Source: Methanosarcina sp. 2.H.T.1A.6
GTDB taxonomy: Archaea > Halobacteriota > Methanosarcinia > Methanosarcinales > Methanosarcinaceae
Length of the DNA: 64,000 bases
Direction: 5' to 3'
NCBI RefSeq assembly: GCF_000979455.1
Contig: NZ_JJOY01000049.1
Span: 62,001-126,000, forward strand
Shown here: piece after piece, positions 2,134 to 11,887 of the stretch
Layout: the number at the start of each line of letters is the position of its first letter
How positions within the stretch are numbered: position 1 is the stretch's first letter
Notes under the pieces: generated by a model
What the model was told of the DNA's origin: nothing
Seen by the model: the letters and a program-made list of their open reading frames with translations, nothing else
The model's database searches: none
Program-made: the position numbers and the translations under genes

Positions 2134-2181
2134 GATTAAATCGAAATTTTAAAATTATTTTTGTGATTGGAGAAGAGTGGA

Positions 2182-5100
2182 ATGGGAGGAAACTTGAGAA
2201 AGTCTGGGATTGAGGTTCTCGGAAATGTGCCCTGGAGGACACACTTCTGCCAGTTCTACCAGACAAAAGAAGATTTGACGGATATACTTATCCCATATTT
2301 CAAATCAGGGCTGGAAAATAATGAATTTTGTTTCTGGGTCACATCACAACCTTCTGGAGCAGAGGAGGCAAAAGACGCCCTCAGAATGGCTGTTCCAGAT
2401 ATTGATGATTATCTTGAAAAAGGGCAAATAGAAATTACTTCCTGCAACCAGGGACATGCAAATGAAGGTGCTTTTGATTCTGAGAAAGTCATTTCTGAAA
2501 AAGTCATAAATGATTGGGTTATAAAATTAAATCGGGCTCTAACAAATGGCTTTTCAGGGCTGAGAGCAGCAGTGAATATTTCCTGGTTGAAGGAAGGACA
2601 TAGGGATAATTTTGCTAACTATGAGAACAAAGTGAATTCTGTTATTGGAAAATACCAGACAATAACTCTGTATCCGTATTTTCTCAAAAAGGCCAGTACA
2701 GCAGATATTATTGATGCAGCCCCAAGCCATCAATTTATTTTGACCAGAAAGGACGGAAAATGGGGACGAATAGAGAACTCCAGGTGGAAAAATATAACCG
2801 GGGGTAAAAGGACAGGGGAAACTCAACAGAAGAACTGGCAAGATCTGGAGTCCCGTATCACCTCGGAAAGTGAAATCAGGTGGATATGCGAAAAAGCAGA
2901 CCTGATACTTGATAACAACGTTACGCTTCACGGCGATTTTTATACTGCTCAGGATATTGCCGTGGGCAGGAAGGCAGAAGAGGAGGTTCCGAGCCGGACC
3001 GAGCGGTTTATCAGACCTGAACTGGATAGCATTTTCTCTTCTGATAGGGAGATGGTAAACCTGGAACTTGCTGATATTATTGATACCCTGGAGATCCAGT
3101 CCCTCATGGATGATTTCTACAGGTTCGCTCACATTTCCATGGCTCTGGTCGACCTCAAAGGCAATGTTTTGGTTGGTGTCGGATGGCAGGAGATCTGCAC
3201 GAGATTCCACAGGGTCCACCCTGAGACCTTTAGGCACTGTGTGGAAAGCGATACAAGGCTATCAGCGGGGGTTCTTCCTGGAGAGTTTAAATTGTACAGG
3301 TGCAGGAACAATATGTGGGACATAGCGACTCCGATTATGGTGGGGGGTCAGCATATCGGTAATATCTTTTCAGGGCAGTTCTTTTTTGAAACCGAGACTC
3401 TAAACTACGAACTTTTCCGAGCCCAGGCCAGAAAATACGGTTTCAACGAAGAGGAATACATAGCAGCGCTTGAGAAAGTCCCGCGGCTGAAAAGGGAAAC
3501 CGTGAATGCGGGCATGAACTTCTTAATCAGGCTTGCCAACATGATCTCGCAGCTAAGTTACAGCAACATCAAGCTGTCCCGGTCGCTGGTTGAGCGTGAT
3601 GCTCTGGTGAATTCGCTAAGGGAGAGCAAGGAAAAATATCGCAGTGTTGTGGAAACAGCAAATGAAGGCATATGGATTATTGATGCTGAAGACAGGACTA
3701 TTTACGTAAATAAAAAAATGGCGGATATGCTGGGGTATGCTCAGCACGAAATGATTGGCAGATCTGAGTGGGACTTCACCGATGAAAAAGATGAGGCTGT
3801 TTCCAGAATAAATCTGGAAAAAAGGAAGCAGGGCATTGATGTAAGTCATGAATTTAAATTTATACGCAAGGATGGTTCATCTTTATGGACACTTGTAAAC
3901 ACTAAATCTTTCTTTGACAAAGATGGAAAGTTCACCGGTTCTATGGGCATGCTCACCGACATTACAGAGCGTAAACGGGTCGAGGAGGCTCTGGCTTTCG
4001 AGCGATCGCAGCTCCTGTCCATTTTTGATGGCATCGACGATGTGGTGTACGTGTCTGATCCTTATACCCATGAGGTGCTGTACGCGAACAAGGCGATGAA
4101 GGAGAAGTTTGGCATCGAATTCGTGGGAGGGCTTTGCTACCAGAAGTTCCAGAGGAGGGATTCCCCCTGTGATTTCTGTACCAATCATATTATTTTAAAG
4201 GAGAAAGGTAAGCCCTACCATTGGGAGTATCACAATACCGCGGCGGATCGGTATTTCATGATCATGGACCGGATTATCAAGTGGCCTGACGGCCGGGATG
4301 TGCGGTTCGAGATCGCAAAGGATATTACTGAACGCAAAAAAACGGAGGAAGCTCTTAAAAAAGCATACGACTATTTAGAAGAAAAAATTGAAGAACGAAC
4401 TGTCCAGCTTGAGAAGGCTTACAAATCATTGAAAGAAAGCGAGGAAGGTCTTTCAGAAGCTCAAAAATTGGCCCATATCGGAAACTGGGAATGGGATATT
4501 GCAGCTGATAAAGCTTACTGGTCCGAGGAAATGTATCGTATTTTCGGACGAGATCCCGAAAAACCAGCACCATCTTACAATGAATATTTTAATTACATAC
4601 ATCCCGATGATCGAGATTTCTATTGTGCCGCTATTAAAAAAGCTGAAAAAGGAAAACCATTTGGTATTGATTACAGGATTGTCCAGGATAATGGAGAAGA
4701 AAGCATAGTCCACCTGAAATCGGAATTTGTTATGAATGATAAAAATATCTCTGTTCGAATTAAAGGAATAGTTCAGGATATCACTGAGCGTAAAAAATCA
4801 GAAGAGAAAATTCAGGTCCTGGCGAATATTGTAGAATCATCAAATGATGCTATTGGAACTTTATCCCTTGACGGAATTATTACAAGCTGGAATAAAGGGG
4901 CAGAGCAGGTTTATGGTTATTCAGCTAAAGAAATTCTTGGAAAGGCCGGGTCCACCCTGTCTCCGCCCCATTTAAGTGAAGAAATGAAAAAATTAAGTGA
5001 ACTTATTAAACAGGGGAAAAAGATCCACTACCATGAGACTTTACGGTTAAGAAAGGATGGGAAGATAATACATGCTTCAATAACTCTTTCTCCGGTTTTT

Positions 5101-6210
5101 GATAGCCATGGAAAGCTTACTGCGATTTCTTTCATTTCTAGGGATATAACCGAAAGGAAAAGAGTAGAAGAAAAACTTCGGGAAAGTGAGGAAAAGTACC
5201 GCAACATTGTGGAGACAGCCAATGAAGGTATATTCATAATTGATGCTGAAAACATAGTCACTTACGCTAATAAGAAAATGACGGATATGCTTGGATACAC
5301 TCTGGAAGAAGTTATTGGCAGAGAGATATGGGACTTCGTCAGTGAAAAAGGTAAAGATATTGTCAAATTGAATCAGGAAAGGAGAAAGCAGGGTATCAAT
5401 GAGAGCTACGAACTGAAATTAATATGTAAGGGTGTTTCATCCTTATGGGCGCTCGTAAGTGCTAAATCCCTTTTTGATAAGGATAGCAGGTTTATGGGCT
5501 CAATTAGTATGCTAACTGACATCACCAAGAGAAAAGAGGCTGAAGAAGCTCTGGCTAATATCGAAATTGCCCGAAAAAAGGAAATCCACCACAGAATTAA
5601 GAATAATCTGCAGGTAATCTCTTCTCTGCTGGACCTTCAGGCTGAAAAGTTCAATAACAAAGAGGATATTAAGGACTCGGAAGTTCTGGAAGCCTTCAGG
5701 GAAAGTCAGGACAGAGTTATATCAATGGCTCTTATCCATGAAGAACTGTACAAAGGGGGAGGGCTCGACACACTGAACTTTTCATCGTATATCGAGGAAC
5801 TCGCAGAGAACCTTTTCCAGACATACAGACTTGGAAATGCTGATATTCAGTTAAACATGGAACTTGAAGAAAACATCTTCTTTGACATGGATGTTGCTGT
5901 CCCGTTAGGAATAATTGTTAACGAACTCGTTTCCAATTCCCTCAAACATGCATTTACTGAAAATGTAGGGGAAATTCGAATCCAGTTTTACAGAAAAGAA
6001 AAGAGCGATAAAACAAATGAATCCCTTTTCAGCTTGATAATTTCAGATAACGGGCAGGGAATTCCTGAAAATATAAAACTGGAAAATATTGAAACACTGG
6101 GACTGAAGCTTGTAAGCATCCTTGTTGATCAGCTAAATGGAAATCTGAAGCTTAAACGAGAGCATGGGACTGGATTCAGGATTTTTTTTAAGGTGGTGGA
6201 AAGCTCATAA
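2182..6210 (+). CDS. Multi-PAS sensor histidine kinase with MEDS and PocR domains
   Basis: Domain order by eye: MEDS (DcmR-type sensory domain, about 15-190), PocR ligand-binding domain (290-465), PAS1 (477-600), PAS2 (607-720, with a cysteine set ending in CDFC), coiled coil (725-760), PAS3 (760-875), PAS4 (880-990), PAS5 (1000-1120), HisKA_2 with the phospho-acceptor in EIHHRIKNN (about 1137), and a HATPase domain with NELVSNSLKHAF and DNGQGIPE (1230-1340). There is no membrane segment, so it is a cytosolic sensor. PAS1 and PAS5 are clearly an internal duplication. I prefer the ATG at 2182 because GGAG lies nine bases upstream; an in-frame TTG at 2167 has no ribosome site. No response regulator lies beside it. 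MEDS and PocR are known for sensing small organic or hydrocarbon-like ligands; the ligand here is unknown. Confidence 0.9.
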   Translation: MGGNLRKSGIEVLGNVPWRTHFCQFYQTKEDLTDILIPYFKSGLENNEFCFWVTSQPSGAEEAKDALRMAVPDIDDYLEKGQIEITSCNQGHANEGAFDSEKVISEKVINDWVIKLNRALTNGFSGLRAAVNISWLKEGHRDNFANYENKVNSVIGKYQTITLYPYFLKKASTADIIDAAPSHQFILTRKDGKWGRIENSRWKNITGGKRTGETQQKNWQDLESRITSESEIRWICEKADLILDNNVTLHGDFYTAQDIAVGRKAEEEVPSRTERFIRPELDSIFSSDREMVNLELADIIDTLEIQSLMDDFYRFAHISMALVDLKGNVLVGVGWQEICTRFHRVHPETFRHCVESDTRLSAGVLPGEFKLYRCRNNMWDIATPIMVGGQHIGNIFSGQFFFETETLNYELFRAQARKYGFNEEEYIAALEKVPRLKRETVNAGMNFLIRLANMISQLSYSNIKLSRSLVERDALVNSLRESKEKYRSVVETANEGIWIIDAEDRTIYVNKKMADMLGYAQHEMIGRSEWDFTDEKDEAVSRINLEKRKQGIDVSHEFKFIRKDGSSLWTLVNTKSFFDKDGKFTGSMGMLTDITERKRVEEALAFERSQLLSIFDGIDDVVYVSDPYTHEVLYANKAMKEKFGIEFVGGLCYQKFQRRDSPCDFCTNHIILKEKGKPYHWEYHNTAADRYFMIMDRIIKWPDGRDVRFEIAKDITERKKTEEALKKAYDYLEEKIEERTVQLEKAYKSLKESEEGLSEAQKLAHIGNWEWDIAADKAYWSEEMYRIFGRDPEKPAPSYNEYFNYIHPDDRDFYCAAIKKAEKGKPFGIDYRIVQDNGEESIVHLKSEFVMNDKNISVRIKGIVQDITERKKSEEKIQVLANIVESSNDAIGTLSLDGIITSWNKGAEQVYGYSAKEILGKAGSTLSPPHLSEEMKKLSELIKQGKKIHYHETLRLRKDGKIIHASITLSPVFDSHGKLTAISFISRDITERKRVEEKLRESEEKYRNIVETANEGIFIIDAENIVTYANKKMTDMLGYTLEEVIGREIWDFVSEKGKDIVKLNQERRKQGINESYELKLICKGVSSLWALVSAKSLFDKDSRFMGSISMLTDITKRKEAEEALANIEIARKKEIHHRIKNNLQVISSLLDLQAEKFNNKEDIKDSEVLEAFRESQDRVISMALIHEELYKGGGLDTLNFSSYIEELAENLFQTYRLGNADIQLNMELEENIFFDMDVAVPLGIIVNELVSNSLKHAFTENVGEIRIQFYRKEKSDKTNESLFSLIISDNGQGIPENIKLENIETLGLKLVSILVDQLNGNLKLKREHGTGFRIFFKVVESS

Positions 6211-6264
6211 CTCCTGTAAATTAGCTCATAACTCCTGTAAATTAGCTCATAAATCCTGTAAATT
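6202..6264 (+). repeat. 21-bp tandem repeat (3 copies) spanning the kinase stop codon
   Basis: The unit AGCTCATAACTCCTGTAAATT occurs at 6202-6222, 6223-6243 and 6244-6264, the third with one change. The first copy contains the kinase stop codon (TAA at 6208-6210), so the array starts inside the end of the gene. Confidence 0.9.
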
Positions 6265-6269
6265 AATAA

Positions 6270-6277
6270 ATTGAGTG
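6270..6277 (+). repeat. Target-site duplication, left (ATTGAGTG)
   Basis: ATTGAGTG lies directly against the outer IS256-type end that starts at 6278. The same eight bases lie directly against the opposite end at 11880-11887. An 8-bp duplication is the size expected for IS256-family insertion. Confidence 0.7.
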
Positions 6278-6335
6278 GCAGTGCGCCAATTTTTCTGTAA
6301 AATTTCCTCTATACCCTTTTAGTTTTCCTTTTTGC

Positions 6336-6488
6336 TTACTGTTCCATTAGTATATGCCTGTTTCCAGTAATCCATTCTTCATTTATATCAATCAGTATTG
6401 AGACTGTTAGTCTCAATACTGATTCCTGGTTCGGGAATGCTCCCACAACTTTGCTTCTTCTTTTGATCTCCTTGTTAGTTCTCTCCAT
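6336..6488 (-). pseudogene. IS256-family transposase, C-terminal fragment
   Basis: Reading the minus strand from 6488 gives 50 residues including EIKRRSKVVGAFPNQESVLR and INEEW, then a stop (6336-6338). This is the conserved C-terminus of IS256/mutator-type transposases. The 350 or so residues expected before it are missing. The fragment is joined almost directly to a copy of the upstream IS end (6491-6519), so most of the gene was deleted. Confidence 0.8.
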
Positions 6489-6490
6489 TA

Positions 6491-6519
6491 TATTTTACAG
6501 AACTTTCGGTACGCTACCC
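6491..6519 (+). repeat. Internal copy of the IS256-type right end
   Basis: These 29 bases (TATTTTACAGAACTTTCGGT and then ACGCTACCC) are identical, in the same direction, to 11851-11879. Here the end sits against the transposase C-terminal fragment, making 6278-6519 a MITE-like deletion derivative about 240 bp long. Confidence 0.85.
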
Positions 6520-6565
6520 GGCGTTCTCTCGAGCGCCGCTAATCACATCTTTAATAATACCTTAT

Positions 6566-9500
6566 TTATTTCTGTTCTTCCTGTCTTCTTTTGTACATAA
6601 ACACAATAAGCAGACAAGCTATCAACAGAAAAGCTATTCTGTAAATCATTTTCATTACAGGGGCTATTTTGCTTTTAATTTCTTCATTTGTCTGTGGTTT
6701 TGCAGTTTCATTTCCAGTTTCTTTTTCAACATATTCAGTCTCTTCTTCAAACTGAATCTGAGTCTCATTTTCTTCCGTCGAAGTTCTGTTCACGTCAACG
6801 TTTTCAGAAGTATCCGAAACAATACGTGCACTGCCAGTTCCACTTCCGTGACCGCTCCTGCCTCCTGAGATCTCGGCAGCAGGAAGAAGCACTTTTACGC
6901 TGCTATTCTTATTTGAAAGCTCATTGCAGCTCACAGTTGCAGTGTTGTCGATATATCCGTCACCGCCACCATTACTGTTTATGTCTTCCTGAGTTACAGT
7001 ATAGTTTCCAGTGCAAGTCCAGTTCTCTCCTACTTCAAGAACTCTATCAGCAGCTTTTGACTCCAAAGGACCTTCCAGAGTAATCATCTGGTCATTTACT
7101 GAAACTCCTGTCAGGTCAACGTTGCCTTCGTTCTTTACGAGGATCCTGTATCGAATGACATCACCGGCATTGTCGGCTACCCCATCTTTTCCATTCTCTA
7201 CTTCGATTACGGACTTGTAGATTGAATAATCCGGATTCTGTTCAATCCGGATTCCTGAACTTTCATTCTCGCTTTCATTACCGCTTTCATCAACGTAATG
7301 GATGGTAGTTTCGTTTATAGGCTCGGTCTCAGAACTGTCAAATGTCACAGTACTGTTGAGGAAACCATCTCCTCCGCCGTTATTGTTCAGATCCTCCTGA
7401 GTGACAGTGTAATTTCCAAGGTAATACCAGGCTTCTCCAACTGAGAGAATACCATCACCACCATTCGTATACCGGGTTAGAGAGGACTGATACAGCCCAA
7501 CCAAGCCAGTGTCCCCATATGGGCCGCGAAGGTTAAGCATGGAATCCCTGACACTTATATTTTTAAGGTCGATGTTTCCGTTATTTGTTACATTAACCTG
7601 GAAGCTGACAACATCTCCTGCAGAGCATATACGGCCTTCTGGACCATTTCCAGCAACATCAATCACAATTTTATTAATCTTGCAAGCAGGTTTCTGTTCT
7701 ATTGAGACTGCAGCACTATCGCTTTTTGGATTCAGTTCAGCGCAGTCAACAGTTGCTGCGTTGTTTATGAAACCGTCTCCTCCGCCATTATTGTTCAGAT
7801 CTTCCTGATTAACCGTGTAAGTTCCACAGTAAATCCAGCTTTCTCTTACTTCGAGAATTCCATCAGAATTCAGACATTCCAGAGGGCCAGTAAGATCTCC
7901 AAGAAGAGGGTCATTAACACTTACATTGGTAAGGTCAACATTACCAGTATTGTTGACTCTTATCTGGTAGCTGATGACATCTCCAGCAGAGTTTACATTA
8001 GCTGAAGGCCCGCTTCCACACAAATCGGTTACGGTTTTGTCAATGGTGTAAGCAGGGTTATATTCTAAAACAGTTATCGTGGCAAAAGTCGAATTAGTAC
8101 CATTTCCATTGCTTACTGTAAGATTTACAGTATAACTTCCTGCCTTATAAAAAGTGTGTGAAGGATGCTGCTCTGTCGAGTTCGTGCCGTCTCCAAAGTC
8201 CCAGAACCATGTGGTAGGTTCGCCTGTAGACCTGTCCGCGAAAGTGACGGTCAGGGGTTCAGTACCTGATATAGGAGTTCCATTGAACGCGGCAGTCGGA
8301 GAAGATTGTGTTACAGTTACATATCCTGTCTTACAAGTGCTGTTGTATCCACCGGCATTAAATGCCTGCAATGTGACCTTATAGGTTCCCGGAGCTGTAT
8401 AGGTGTGCGTGGGGTTAGGATCGTTTGATCCTGTGGGCTGTAGACGCCAGGTGTCGTTCAGGAGTGTGGTATCGTCAAGACCGCCCATAAGGACGATACT
8501 ACCGTCAGAAAGCGCAACGACGTTGTGATAGTACCTTCCCGACCACCCGGCATCTGCTACTTTCGTCCAGGTCCTGCCCTTATCAGTCGACCGCCAAATG
8601 TCGTGTAGGGGAGTGTTGTCAATGCCCAGACCGCCCATAAGGAGGACACTACCATCAGGCATAGCGACACTGCTGTGAGAAGTTCTTCCCATCCACCCCG
8701 AACTCCCGTTAATTAGAGTCCAGGTAGCGCCTTTGTCTTCCGACAGCCAGGTGTCATTCAGGCGGGCAGTGCCGTCAAGCCCTCCTGTGAGGATGATGCT
8801 ACCGTCAGGCAGTGAGGCACTGCTGTGGAATATCCTTCCAGTCCACCCGGCACTTTCGTTCATCCGTTTCCAGGTAGCGCCTTTATCTTCCGACCGCCAT
8901 GTGTCGTTCCTCCAGGTGGCGTCGTCAGAACCACCCATAAGGACAATACTGCCGTCAGGAAGCGCGACGCTGCTGTGATAATACCTTCCAGTCCACCCTG
9001 AACTCGCGTTCACCAGCGTCCACGTTATGCCTTTATCAGTGGACTGCCATGTGTCGTTCCTGCTGCTGGTACTGTCAGAACCACCCATGAGGACGATACT
9101 ACCATCAGGCAGCACGACGCTTGAATGATGGGCACGTGCCGACCACCCGGCATTCGATACTTTCGTCCAGGTTGCACCTTTATTTGTCGACCGCCAAACG
9201 TCATTCAATTTGTTAGTTCCATCCCAACCACCCATTAGGACGATGCTGCCGTCGGGAAGTACAACGCTGCTGTAACAGATTCTTGCCGGCCACCCGGAAC
9301 TCGCATTCATCTGTGTCCACGTTTGCGTGTATGGCTCATCGCCAAAGAACCATGCCCACCCGGTTGGATTGCCGGTAGAAAGGTCGGTGAAGGTGATGTT
9401 CATCGGAACTGTGCCCGACGTTGGGGTGCCGTTGAACGCAGCAGTCGGTACAGGGGGTGAGACCAGAATGTACCCAGCCCTTGAGGACGTGTTAGTTCTT

Positions 9501-10714
9501 GCTGTATTCGTAACAGTCAGGTTGACTGTGTAGCTCCCTGAGGACACGTAGACGTGTGACGGGTTCTGTTCTGTTGAGTTAAAGCCATCTCCAAAGTCCC
9601 AGTCCCATCCGGTTGCGTTTAAGGAACTGTCAGTAAACTGAACTGATAGAGGAGCAGAACCGCTGGTCACATTGCTACTGAAATTGGCAACAGGAAGAAC
9701 GGGTTCTTGTACAGGAACAGAACCTATAAACTGCCCGAAGGCAATAGGTCTGGATCCTACAGATACGGTGGCTGTAACAGTGTTTGTGGAAGTGTCAATG
9801 ACATAGACACTGTTGCTGAAGTAGTTCGCCACATATACTTTTTTTCCATCTGGGGTGACTGCAACTCCAAAAGGAGTTAATCCTACAGTCACATTGTCTG
9901 TAACAGTGTTTGTGGAAGTGTCAATGACAGAGATAGTGTTACTGTTCTGGTTCGCAACATATGCCTTTGTTCCATCGGGGGTGACTGCAACTCCAACAGG
10001 TTCAGATCCTACAGACACACTGTCTGTAACAGTGTTTGTGGAGGTGTCAATTACAGAGACAGTGTTGTCATTGTAGTTTGCCACATATACCTTTGTTCCA
10101 GCCGGGTTGACTGCAACTCCAACAGGTTCAGATCCTACAGACACACTGTCTGTAACAGTGTTTGTGGAGGTGTCAATTACAGAGACAGTGTTGTCATTGT
10201 AGTTTGCCACATATACTTTTGTTCCCGTCGGGTTGACTGCAACTCCCATAGGTCTGGATCCTACAGATACGGTGGCTGTAACAGTGTTTGTGGAAGTGTC
10301 AATGACAGAGACACTGTTGCTGAAGTAGTTCGTCACATATACATTTGTTCCCGTTGGGTTGACTGCAACTCCCCTAGGATTGTTTCCTGCAGACACAGTG
10401 GCTGTTACAGCATTTGTGGAGGTGTCAATGACAGAGATTGAGTTGTCATTGTAGTTTGCCACATATACTTTTGTTCCCGTTGGGTTGACTGCAACTCCCA
10501 TAGGATAGTCTCCTACAGGCACAGTGGCTGTAACAGTGTTTGTGGAGGTGTCAATTACAGAGACAGTGTTGTCGTTGTTGTTCGTAATATACGCAAATTG
10601 CCTACCTAGAGTTTCGGCATGTGTAACATAAGCGCTCATCAATATTAAAAAAAATAAAATCAAACATAAAAGCACTTTATTGGAAATATTAACGCGTTGG
10701 TATTTCATATTCAA
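6566..10714 (-). CDS. Large surface protein: YVTN propeller, PKD, Kelch-like and DUF11-type repeats
   Basis: A 1382-residue exported protein. Order: signal peptide (1-33, cut near THA-ET); seven YVTN beta-propeller repeats of about 42 residues (38-335), highly alike at DNA level (about 9760-10600, 126-bp period); PKD1 (338-415); PKD2 (418-805) interrupted after WAWFFGDEP by six Kelch-like repeats of about 49 residues, each with PDGSIVLMGG and NDTW; PKD3 (805-883); three DUF11/TIGR01451-type repeats with NNNGGGDGF (885-1275); a low-complexity acidic stretch; and a C-terminal membrane anchor (about 1355-1377) followed by KRRQEEQK. It should stand outside the cell, anchored in the membrane, probably in adhesion or the cell envelope. 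It is the only intact gene inside the IS256-bounded unit. The ATG at 10714 is followed by a second ATG two codons later (10708). Confidence 0.9.
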   Translation of the reverse strand: MNMKYQRVNISNKVLLCLILFFLILMSAYVTHAETLGRQFAYITNNNDNTVSVIDTSTNTVTATVPVGDYPMGVAVNPTGTKVYVANYNDNSISVIDTSTNAVTATVSAGNNPRGVAVNPTGTNVYVTNYFSNSVSVIDTSTNTVTATVSVGSRPMGVAVNPTGTKVYVANYNDNTVSVIDTSTNTVTDSVSVGSEPVGVAVNPAGTKVYVANYNDNTVSVIDTSTNTVTDSVSVGSEPVGVAVTPDGTKAYVANQNSNTISVIDTSTNTVTDNVTVGLTPFGVAVTPDGKKVYVANYFSNSVYVIDTSTNTVTATVSVGSRPIAFGQFIGSVPVQEPVLPVANFSSNVTSGSAPLSVQFTDSSLNATGWDWDFGDGFNSTEQNPSHVYVSSGSYTVNLTVTNTARTNTSSRAGYILVSPPVPTAAFNGTPTSGTVPMNITFTDLSTGNPTGWAWFFGDEPYTQTWTQMNASSGWPARICYSSVVLPDGSIVLMGGWDGTNKLNDVWRSTNKGATWTKVSNAGWSARAHHSSVVLPDGSIVLMGGSDSTSSRNDTWQSTDKGITWTLVNASSGWTGRYYHSSVALPDGSIVLMGGSDDATWRNDTWRSEDKGATWKRMNESAGWTGRIFHSSASLPDGSIILTGGLDGTARLNDTWLSEDKGATWTLINGSSGWMGRTSHSSVAMPDGSVLLMGGLGIDNTPLHDIWRSTDKGRTWTKVADAGWSGRYYHNVVALSDGSIVLMGGLDDTTLLNDTWRLQPTGSNDPNPTHTYTAPGTYKVTLQAFNAGGYNSTCKTGYVTVTQSSPTAAFNGTPISGTEPLTVTFADRSTGEPTTWFWDFGDGTNSTEQHPSHTFYKAGSYTVNLTVSNGNGTNSTFATITVLEYNPAYTIDKTVTDLCGSGPSANVNSAGDVISYQIRVNNTGNVDLTNVSVNDPLLGDLTGPLECLNSDGILEVRESWIYCGTYTVNQEDLNNNGGGDGFINNAATVDCAELNPKSDSAAVSIEQKPACKINKIVIDVAGNGPEGRICSAGDVVSFQVNVTNNGNIDLKNISVRDSMLNLRGPYGDTGLVGLYQSSLTRYTNGGDGILSVGEAWYYLGNYTVTQEDLNNNGGGDGFLNSTVTFDSSETEPINETTIHYVDESGNESENESSGIRIEQNPDYSIYKSVIEVENGKDGVADNAGDVIRYRILVKNEGNVDLTGVSVNDQMITLEGPLESKAADRVLEVGENWTCTGNYTVTQEDINSNGGGDGYIDNTATVSCNELSNKNSSVKVLLPAAEISGGRSGHGSGTGSARIVSDTSENVDVNRTSTEENETQIQFEEETEYVEKETGNETAKPQTNEEIKSKIAPVMKMIYRIAFLLIACLLIVFMYKRRQEEQK

Positions 10715-11419
10715 GCGCTCCTCATCTATCTGAAAATGTCATTGTTTTTCTCATCCCAAATCCTCGTACACAACTTAATAATTATTTTTATTGCCTCTGC
10801 TGAATTTTACGGGATTTAATAACTGATTTTTTGTATTTCATTTGTTTTTTATATTATTAATATTAAAAATTATTAATTATGTTTTTAATGTGTCAGCAAG
10901 CTTTTCATTTTTTATTCATCTATCCACTTCGTATCACGAACAGCATCATTATACCCGAAAGATAGCATAAGCTAAACAAGCACAGATGCTTAATCTCTCA
11001 TTAACGGAAATTTGTATTCTCTTAAATTGGAGTGACTAAAAAGCAAAAATTATTTTTAATGTATGACGTTATTAAGTAGAAGATGTTTTGGGAGTTTATT
11101 TCAAGATCTGGCTCGTTTTAGAACCTTTAAGTAGCTATATGATATTTATTTCACTCTTCCGAATATAGAGACTACAAGCTGGTTATCCATTGCACTTTTT
11201 ATATTAAATAAGATATAACTTAAGTAATATTCTAAATAAGAAAATAAAACAATATATACATTACCGTTGGAAAAAATTCAGAAAAAAGCTATTTGATTTG
11301 TTTTTCCATTTATTGATCGATTCGGAAAAGTTCATACATTCAAGAGTTATCTCGAAAACTTATTTCATTGGTGTATATTGTTTTTCTGAGATTTTGTGGA
11401 GAAGTTTCAATATATATTT
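10715..11419. other. AT-rich space upstream of the surface-protein gene
   Basis: About 700 bases, very AT-rich, with no convincing frame on either strand. The promoter of the minus-strand surface-protein gene should lie near its left edge; AT-only blocks at about 10780-10880 are candidates, but no single TATA box stands out. The right edge merges with the broken transposase. Confidence 0.5.
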
Positions 11420-11793
11420 CGAGACTCCTTCTACTCCTAAAGCAGTCATTATCTTTTCCACCCTTCGGTGGAAACACCTTGAAGGTAGGATTCACTAACT
11501 GCAGTTAAAATGGCCTTTTCAACTCTGGAATACTTCTCAAAAACCTCTGTTTCAAAGGGAAACTCACGGAATTGAGGCTTTAATAAGTCAAGTTCCCCAT
11601 ATTTAGTCAGGAGAGTTCGAGGTTTGTAACCGTTTCTACTGGCTTTACGTGAATCAGTACGCTCATAACGGTGCGCCCCAGCTTGGAGGAGGACTTCCTC
11701 CTCCATTACGAGGTTTAAAAACCAGGTAATTAGCTGGCGAATTCCAGCTTCCTGATCGAAAAGATAACCTTTTATAAATGAGACTATATTAAA
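11420..11793 (-). pseudogene. IS256-family transposase, N-terminal fragment (frameshifted)
   Basis: Translation from ATG 11793 gives MFNIVSFIKGYLFDQEAG, then ASRNGYKPRTLLTKYGELDL and ESYLQGVST, typical of the N-terminal third of IS256-type transposases. After VST the frame breaks (stop near 11449). Shifting frame recovers about 15 more residues (EKIMTALGVEGVSK) before similarity ends near 11420. The middle of the gene is lost and its C-terminus lies 4.9 kb away at 6336-6488. An earlier TTG at 11847 also keeps the frame open but has no family-like residues. Confidence 0.8.
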
Positions 11794-11850
11794 CATTGAC
11801 TCTGCATCCTGTTTTTTTGTGGTGAAAGAAAAAGGATACAGAGTCAATCA

Positions 11851-11879
11851 TATTTTACAGAACTTTCGGTACGCTACCC
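11851..11879 (+). repeat. IS256-type outer right end
   Basis: Terminal repeat just upstream of the transposase N-terminal fragment. Read on the minus strand it begins GGGTAGCGTACCGAAAG. It pairs imperfectly with the left end at 6278-6304 and is identical to 6491-6519. Confidence 0.75.
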
Positions 11880-11887
11880 ATTGAGTG
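11880..11887 (+). repeat. Target-site duplication, right (ATTGAGTG)
   Basis: Second copy of the eight bases found at 6270-6277, directly against the outer right end of the IS256-bounded unit. Confidence 0.7.

What the first reader, a model, noticed from the sequence alone, without database searches (positions are those of the whole stretch)
6270..11887. A 4.1 kb surface-protein gene appears to be cargo of an IS256-type composite transposon
Seen: the two outer IS256-like ends (6278 and 11879) point outward and are flanked exactly by the same eight bases, ATTGAGTG. The transposase C-terminal piece lies at the left end and the N-terminal piece at the right, both minus-strand. An extra copy of the right end (6491-6519) inside the unit is not flanked by the duplication. 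Known: IS256-family insertion duplicates 8-9 bp. Inference: the 5.6 kb unit moved as one, or one IS insertion was later split by the surface gene. Mobile adhesin cassettes would help explain how surface repertoires differ between methanogen strains.
Basis: partly seen in the sequence, partly recalled or inferred. Interest (0 to 1): 0.8.

Follow-up and report, generated by a model that had tools for sequence, protein, structure and literature searches.

The report
IS256-bracketed surface gene in Methanosarcina
In one Methanosarcina genome an intact cell-surface protein gene sits between two decayed pieces of a common jumping element, at a spot where related species have nothing, so it probably arrived with that element, but nothing shows that it still moves or recurs as a mobile cassette.

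Summary
Window 6277-11878 starts with the left end and stops with the right end of one IS256/Mutator-family element (full copies in other Methanosarcina species: about 1,268 bp, about 391-aa transposase, 8-bp target duplications). The left piece is a 243-bp internally deleted copy with both ends (6277-6519); the right piece is the transposase-N-terminal end (11421-11878). The middle 591 bp is missing. In at least seven other Methanosarcina genomes the flanking kinase and lysS genes are adjacent, so the 5.6 kb is a lineage-specific insertion. The cargo is an intact 1,382-aa YVTN/PKD/Kelch/DUF7507 surface protein. Its closest homologue, in another species, sits at a different locus, is also a lineage-specific insertion, and has no such IS. 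No second copy of the unit, no intact transposase of this IS in the assembly, and no similar cargo unit in nine other genomes were found. Best reading: a decayed IS256 composite-type insertion. An in-situ alternative (one IS later opened by recombination with another IS copy next to the gene) is not excluded. Ordinary mechanism, modest interest.

The parts
6277..6519 (-). 243-bp internally deleted IS256-family element: IS bases 1-218 (transposase C-terminus, minus strand) fused to the last 30 bases of the right end
6490..6519 (.). inner copy of the right end, identical over 30 bp to the outer right end, no target duplication beside it
6566..10714 (-). intact surface-protein gene, 1,382 aa: signal peptide, 7 YVTN repeats, PKD, Kelch repeats, PKD, three DUF7507/DUF11-type domains, C-terminal membrane anchor
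10715..11420 (.). non-coding upstream region of the surface gene; parts similar to the region upstream of the G007 homologue (to 10789, and 11194-11264)
11421..11878 (-). right piece of the IS256-family element (IS bases 810-1268), with transposase N-terminal 132-aa ORF 11449-11847

Best explanation
A surface-protein gene with its own upstream region became enclosed between two same-orientation copies of one IS256/Mutator-family element. The outermost left end of one copy and the outermost right end of the other were then used as the ends of a composite-type transposon, and the 5.6 kb unit inserted between a histidine kinase gene and lysS, copying 8 bp of target. Each IS copy is now decayed: the left one is a 243-bp internal-deletion derivative that keeps both ends, the right one keeps only its right 459 bp. 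The unit cannot move by itself. Shown: IS identity, ends, duplication, absence at the same site in relatives, intact cargo. Inferred: that the 5.6 kb moved in one step, and the order in which the two IS copies decayed.
For: Outer left and right ends of the same IS family share a 7/8 (8/8 if slid by one) flanking repeat, as expected only if both came in together. Kinase and lysS are adjacent in relatives, with nothing between. Two right ends in the same orientation, identical over 30 bp with a derived terminus, show that two IS copies of one sublineage bracket the gene. The gene and its upstream region are absent from this place in every relative seen and its homologue lies elsewhere in G007. 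Left and right pieces have different nearest relatives (left G009 90%, right G007 92%), as two IS copies could.
Against: No second copy of the unit and no donor locus. No such cargo unit in nine other genomes. The difference in affinity between the two pieces is not significant (AU p 0.125). Recombination between IS copies seems common in this family: five of eleven full copies lack a duplication, so an in-situ history is quite possible.
Confidence: 0.52

Rival explanations
1. A single IS inserted between kinase and lysS and made the duplication. Later, homologous recombination between this IS and a second IS copy lying next to the surface gene (on a circle or elsewhere in the chromosome) brought the gene into the IS and left an extra right end. 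The left copy then lost its middle by a microhomology deletion.
For: Gives the same final anatomy and the same duplication. Swapped flanks are frequent in this IS family (5 of 11 copies), and internal-deletion derivatives are common in other genomes.
Against: Needs a gene-plus-IS donor, which is seen nowhere, and more steps than one composite insertion.
Confidence: 0.36
2. The two IS pieces are unrelated insertions or remnants that happen to flank an older gene, and the matching octamer is chance.
For: IS fragments are scattered through these genomes.
Against: Relatives have no gene here; the octamer occurs only at these two places in 64 kb, exactly at the two ends; full copies without duplication match at 0-4 of 8.
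Confidence: 0.07
3. Assembly artefact: IS pieces misjoined.
For: The genome is a draft of 54 contigs, and IS sequences can cause misjoins.
Against: The unit lies inside contig C22, both IS pieces are truncated and effectively unique in the assembly, and the outer ends carry a matched duplication.
Confidence: 0.05

Closest known systems
IS256 family (Mutator superfamily, PF00872 / NF033543) insertion sequences, e.g. ISCth4 (PMC7780238)
   Same: Transposase family, terminal inverted repeats with subterminal TGTAAA, 8-bp duplications
   Different: Here only decayed pieces, with 4.9 kb of other DNA between them
Composite transposons with 8-bp duplications, e.g. Tn6645, and MITE-bounded pseudo-composites such as MITE-297 structures (PMC6382973)
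   Same: Host genes between two IS or MITE copies, target duplication only at the outer ends, region absent from close relatives
   Different: Archaeal; left copy an internal-deletion derivative, right copy lacks its inner end; transposition as a unit not shown
Methanosarcina YVTN/PKD surface-layer-type proteins
   Same: Domain make-up (beta-propeller, PKD, DUF11-like repeats, C-terminal anchor); matches to parts of it in all 31 genomes searched
   Different: This combination has one clear homologue (G007, 67% over the C-terminal 496 aa), longer and at another locus

Membership tests
IS256 family insertion sequence (the two pieces) | Mutator/IS256-type transposase | tested here: met
   PF00872 E 6.7e-21; 89% identity of the N-terminal piece to the G007 transposase
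IS256 family insertion sequence (the two pieces) | terminal inverted repeats with subterminal TGTAAA | tested here: met
   CTGTAAAAT near both outer ends and the inner right end; motif named as a family feature in PMC7780238
IS256 family insertion sequence (the two pieces) | 8-bp target duplication | tested here: met
   7/8 in the phase of intact copies, 8/8 slid by one; six of eleven full copies have 8/8
Composite transposon | two copies of one IS bracketing other genes | tested here: met
   two right ends in the same orientation around the gene; both copies decayed
Composite transposon | target duplication at the outer ends only, and an empty site in relatives | tested here: met
   the undivided octamer itself is not conserved in the diverged relatives
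Composite transposon | moves, or has moved, as one unit (second copy or donor site) | tested here: inconclusive
   no second copy or donor found; no other strain of the species available
Composite transposon | at least one functional transposase in the unit | tested here: not met
   both transposase genes truncated; no intact one of this IS in the assembly

The most novel reading that the evidence does not exclude
Large modular surface-protein genes of Methanosarcina relocate between sites as discrete units, by IS256-type ends here and by an unrecognised route in G007, so that surface repertoires turn over by whole-gene relocation.
Probability: 0.12. Interest if true: 0.6.

Novelty: new member of a known kind. 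Interest (0 to 1): 0.3.

Why it matters
It is a fairly clear archaeal case of an intact large surface-protein gene arriving with the ends of a simple insertion sequence at a lineage-specific site. It gives one concrete route by which surface-protein gene sets differ between methanogen species. The mechanism is ordinary and no recurrence was found, so it does not by itself explain surface repertoire variation.

Tried and rejected
Second copy of the unit or a mobile MITE: none; no listed hit in the genus crosses the 243-bp deletion junction. Composite-like pairs of IS ends with kb-scale cargo in nine other, mostly complete, genomes: none on reading the match table by eye. Donor locus in the own genome: the site that carries the homologue in G007 is empty in G000, G020, G023, G010 and G008. 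Different IS lineages for the two pieces: suggestive only, AU p 0.125. Genome-contig scan with the C-terminal 491 aa of the surface protein: nothing confirmed. A first tree script timed out. Papers: no description of an IS256-type composite in Methanosarcina in the library searched.

Full report
Observation. The window is from a Methanosarcina draft genome (G000, 4.07 Mb, 54 contigs; window = C22:62001-126000). Other species of the genus carry full copies of the element in question: 1,262-1,269 bp, one transposase of about 391 aa of the Mutator/IS256 type on the minus strand, ends GGCAGTG...CACTGCC with subterminal TGTAAA, and 8-bp target duplications such as ATCTGAAC, ACAGTATA and AGATATCT. 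Against these, window 6277-6495 is IS bases 1-218, 6490-6519 is the last 30 bases or so of the IS, and 11421-11878 is bases 810-1268. Bases 219-809 are absent. The left piece is therefore a 243-bp internal-deletion derivative with both ends, formed within a short shared sequence around ATATTT, and the right piece is a lone right end.

Target duplication. In the phase set by the intact copies the duplication reads AATTGAGT / CATTGAGT, seven of eight. Full copies without a duplication match at only 0-4 of 8. Inner and outer right ends are identical over 30 bp, including a GCTACCC terminus that no full copy has, so they are copies of one IS sublineage. A fragment with GCTACC also exists in G014 (L116).

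Empty site. The left neighbour (MEDS/PocR/PAS histidine kinase) and the right neighbour (lysS) are adjacent in G020 (12 bp between the matched flanks), G023, G001, G009, G007, G011 and G027, and in further named Methanosarcina genomes; other relatives lack the kinase but also have no surface gene here. None has the surface gene without IS at this place, and none has a plain IS there. So the 5.6 kb is an insertion on the lineage leading to this genome. The flanks are too diverged to show the exact undivided octamer.

Cargo. One intact ORF of 1,382 aa: signal peptide, seven YVTN repeats, PKD, Kelch repeats, PKD, three DUF7507/DUF11-type domains, and a C-terminal membrane anchor (signal peptide and anchor read from the sequence). 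Parts of it have matches in all 31 genomes, but only G007 has a clear homologue: a 2,339-aa protein with the same leader and C-terminus, 67% identical over residues 887-1382, and with similar sequence upstream of the gene. In G007 it lies between a kinase gene and a PhoU-like gene; in G000, G020, G023, G010 and G008 these two genes are neighbours with no surface gene between them. The homologue is thus also a lineage-specific insertion, at another site, with no ends of this IS recognised there. The gene type is nomadic, but this IS is not its general vehicle.

Mechanism. The duplication shows that the two outer ends came in together. Two histories fit: (a) the 5.6 kb unit transposed as a composite whose two IS copies decayed before or after (0.52); (b) a lone IS inserted first and the gene entered it by recombination with another IS copy adjacent to the gene (0.36). 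For (b) speaks the frequency of mismatched flanks in this IS family, five of eleven copies; against it, the need for a gene-plus-IS donor that is not seen anywhere. Left and right pieces have different nearest relatives (left: G009 90%; right: G007 92%), which would fit two IS copies, but the test is not significant (AU p 0.125), and the reference copies may themselves be mosaic. No copy of the unit, no intact transposase of this IS in the assembly, and no comparable cargo-bearing pair of ends in nine other genomes were found, so present mobility and recurrence are unsupported. An intact copy hidden in an assembly gap cannot be excluded.

Comparison with the known. IS256-family copy-out/paste-in transposition with A/T-rich 8-bp duplications is established (PMC7780238). 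Composite transposons and MITE-bounded pseudo-composites are known in bacteria, for example Tn6645 and MITE-297 structures (PMC6382973). This is most likely a decayed archaeal member of that kind carrying a surface gene. No report of such a case in Methanosarcina turned up in the library searched, which is not proof of absence.

Noticed in passing
L132 (G007:C1:4113000-4124000) and L215: The G007 homologue of the surface gene is itself a lineage-specific insertion of about 7.7 kb between a PAS/histidine kinase gene and a PhoU-like gene; no IS256-type ends or target duplication were recognised there, so its route is unknown.
   Followed up: partly
kinase gene, window 2167-6210, and syntenic loci L122, L126, L158, L159, L165, L188: The large sensory kinase upstream of lysS is present in some Methanosarcina genomes and not found there in others, and its similarity between species varies strongly along the gene.
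   Followed up: no
window 6202-6264: Three tandem 21-bp copies (AGCTCATAACTCCTGTAAATT) begin at the 3' end of the kinase gene (its stop codon is in the first copy) and run up to just before the insertion; similar TCCTGTRAATTA repeats occur at the same place in relatives.
   Followed up: no
window 6390-6424: A perfect 16-bp inverted repeat with 3-bp loop inside the IS left piece, also present in the full IS copies of other species, near the transposase C-terminus.
   Followed up: no
window 11795-11848: A 24-bp inverted repeat (88%) with a 6-bp loop next to the IS right end, at the transposase start, visible in the full copies too.
   Followed up: no
G007:C1:896309-896738, G007:C1:198584-198988, G005:C2:1565592-1566147: Short internal-deletion derivatives of the same IS, with both ends, in other species: this IS readily produces MITE-like forms.
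   Followed up: partly
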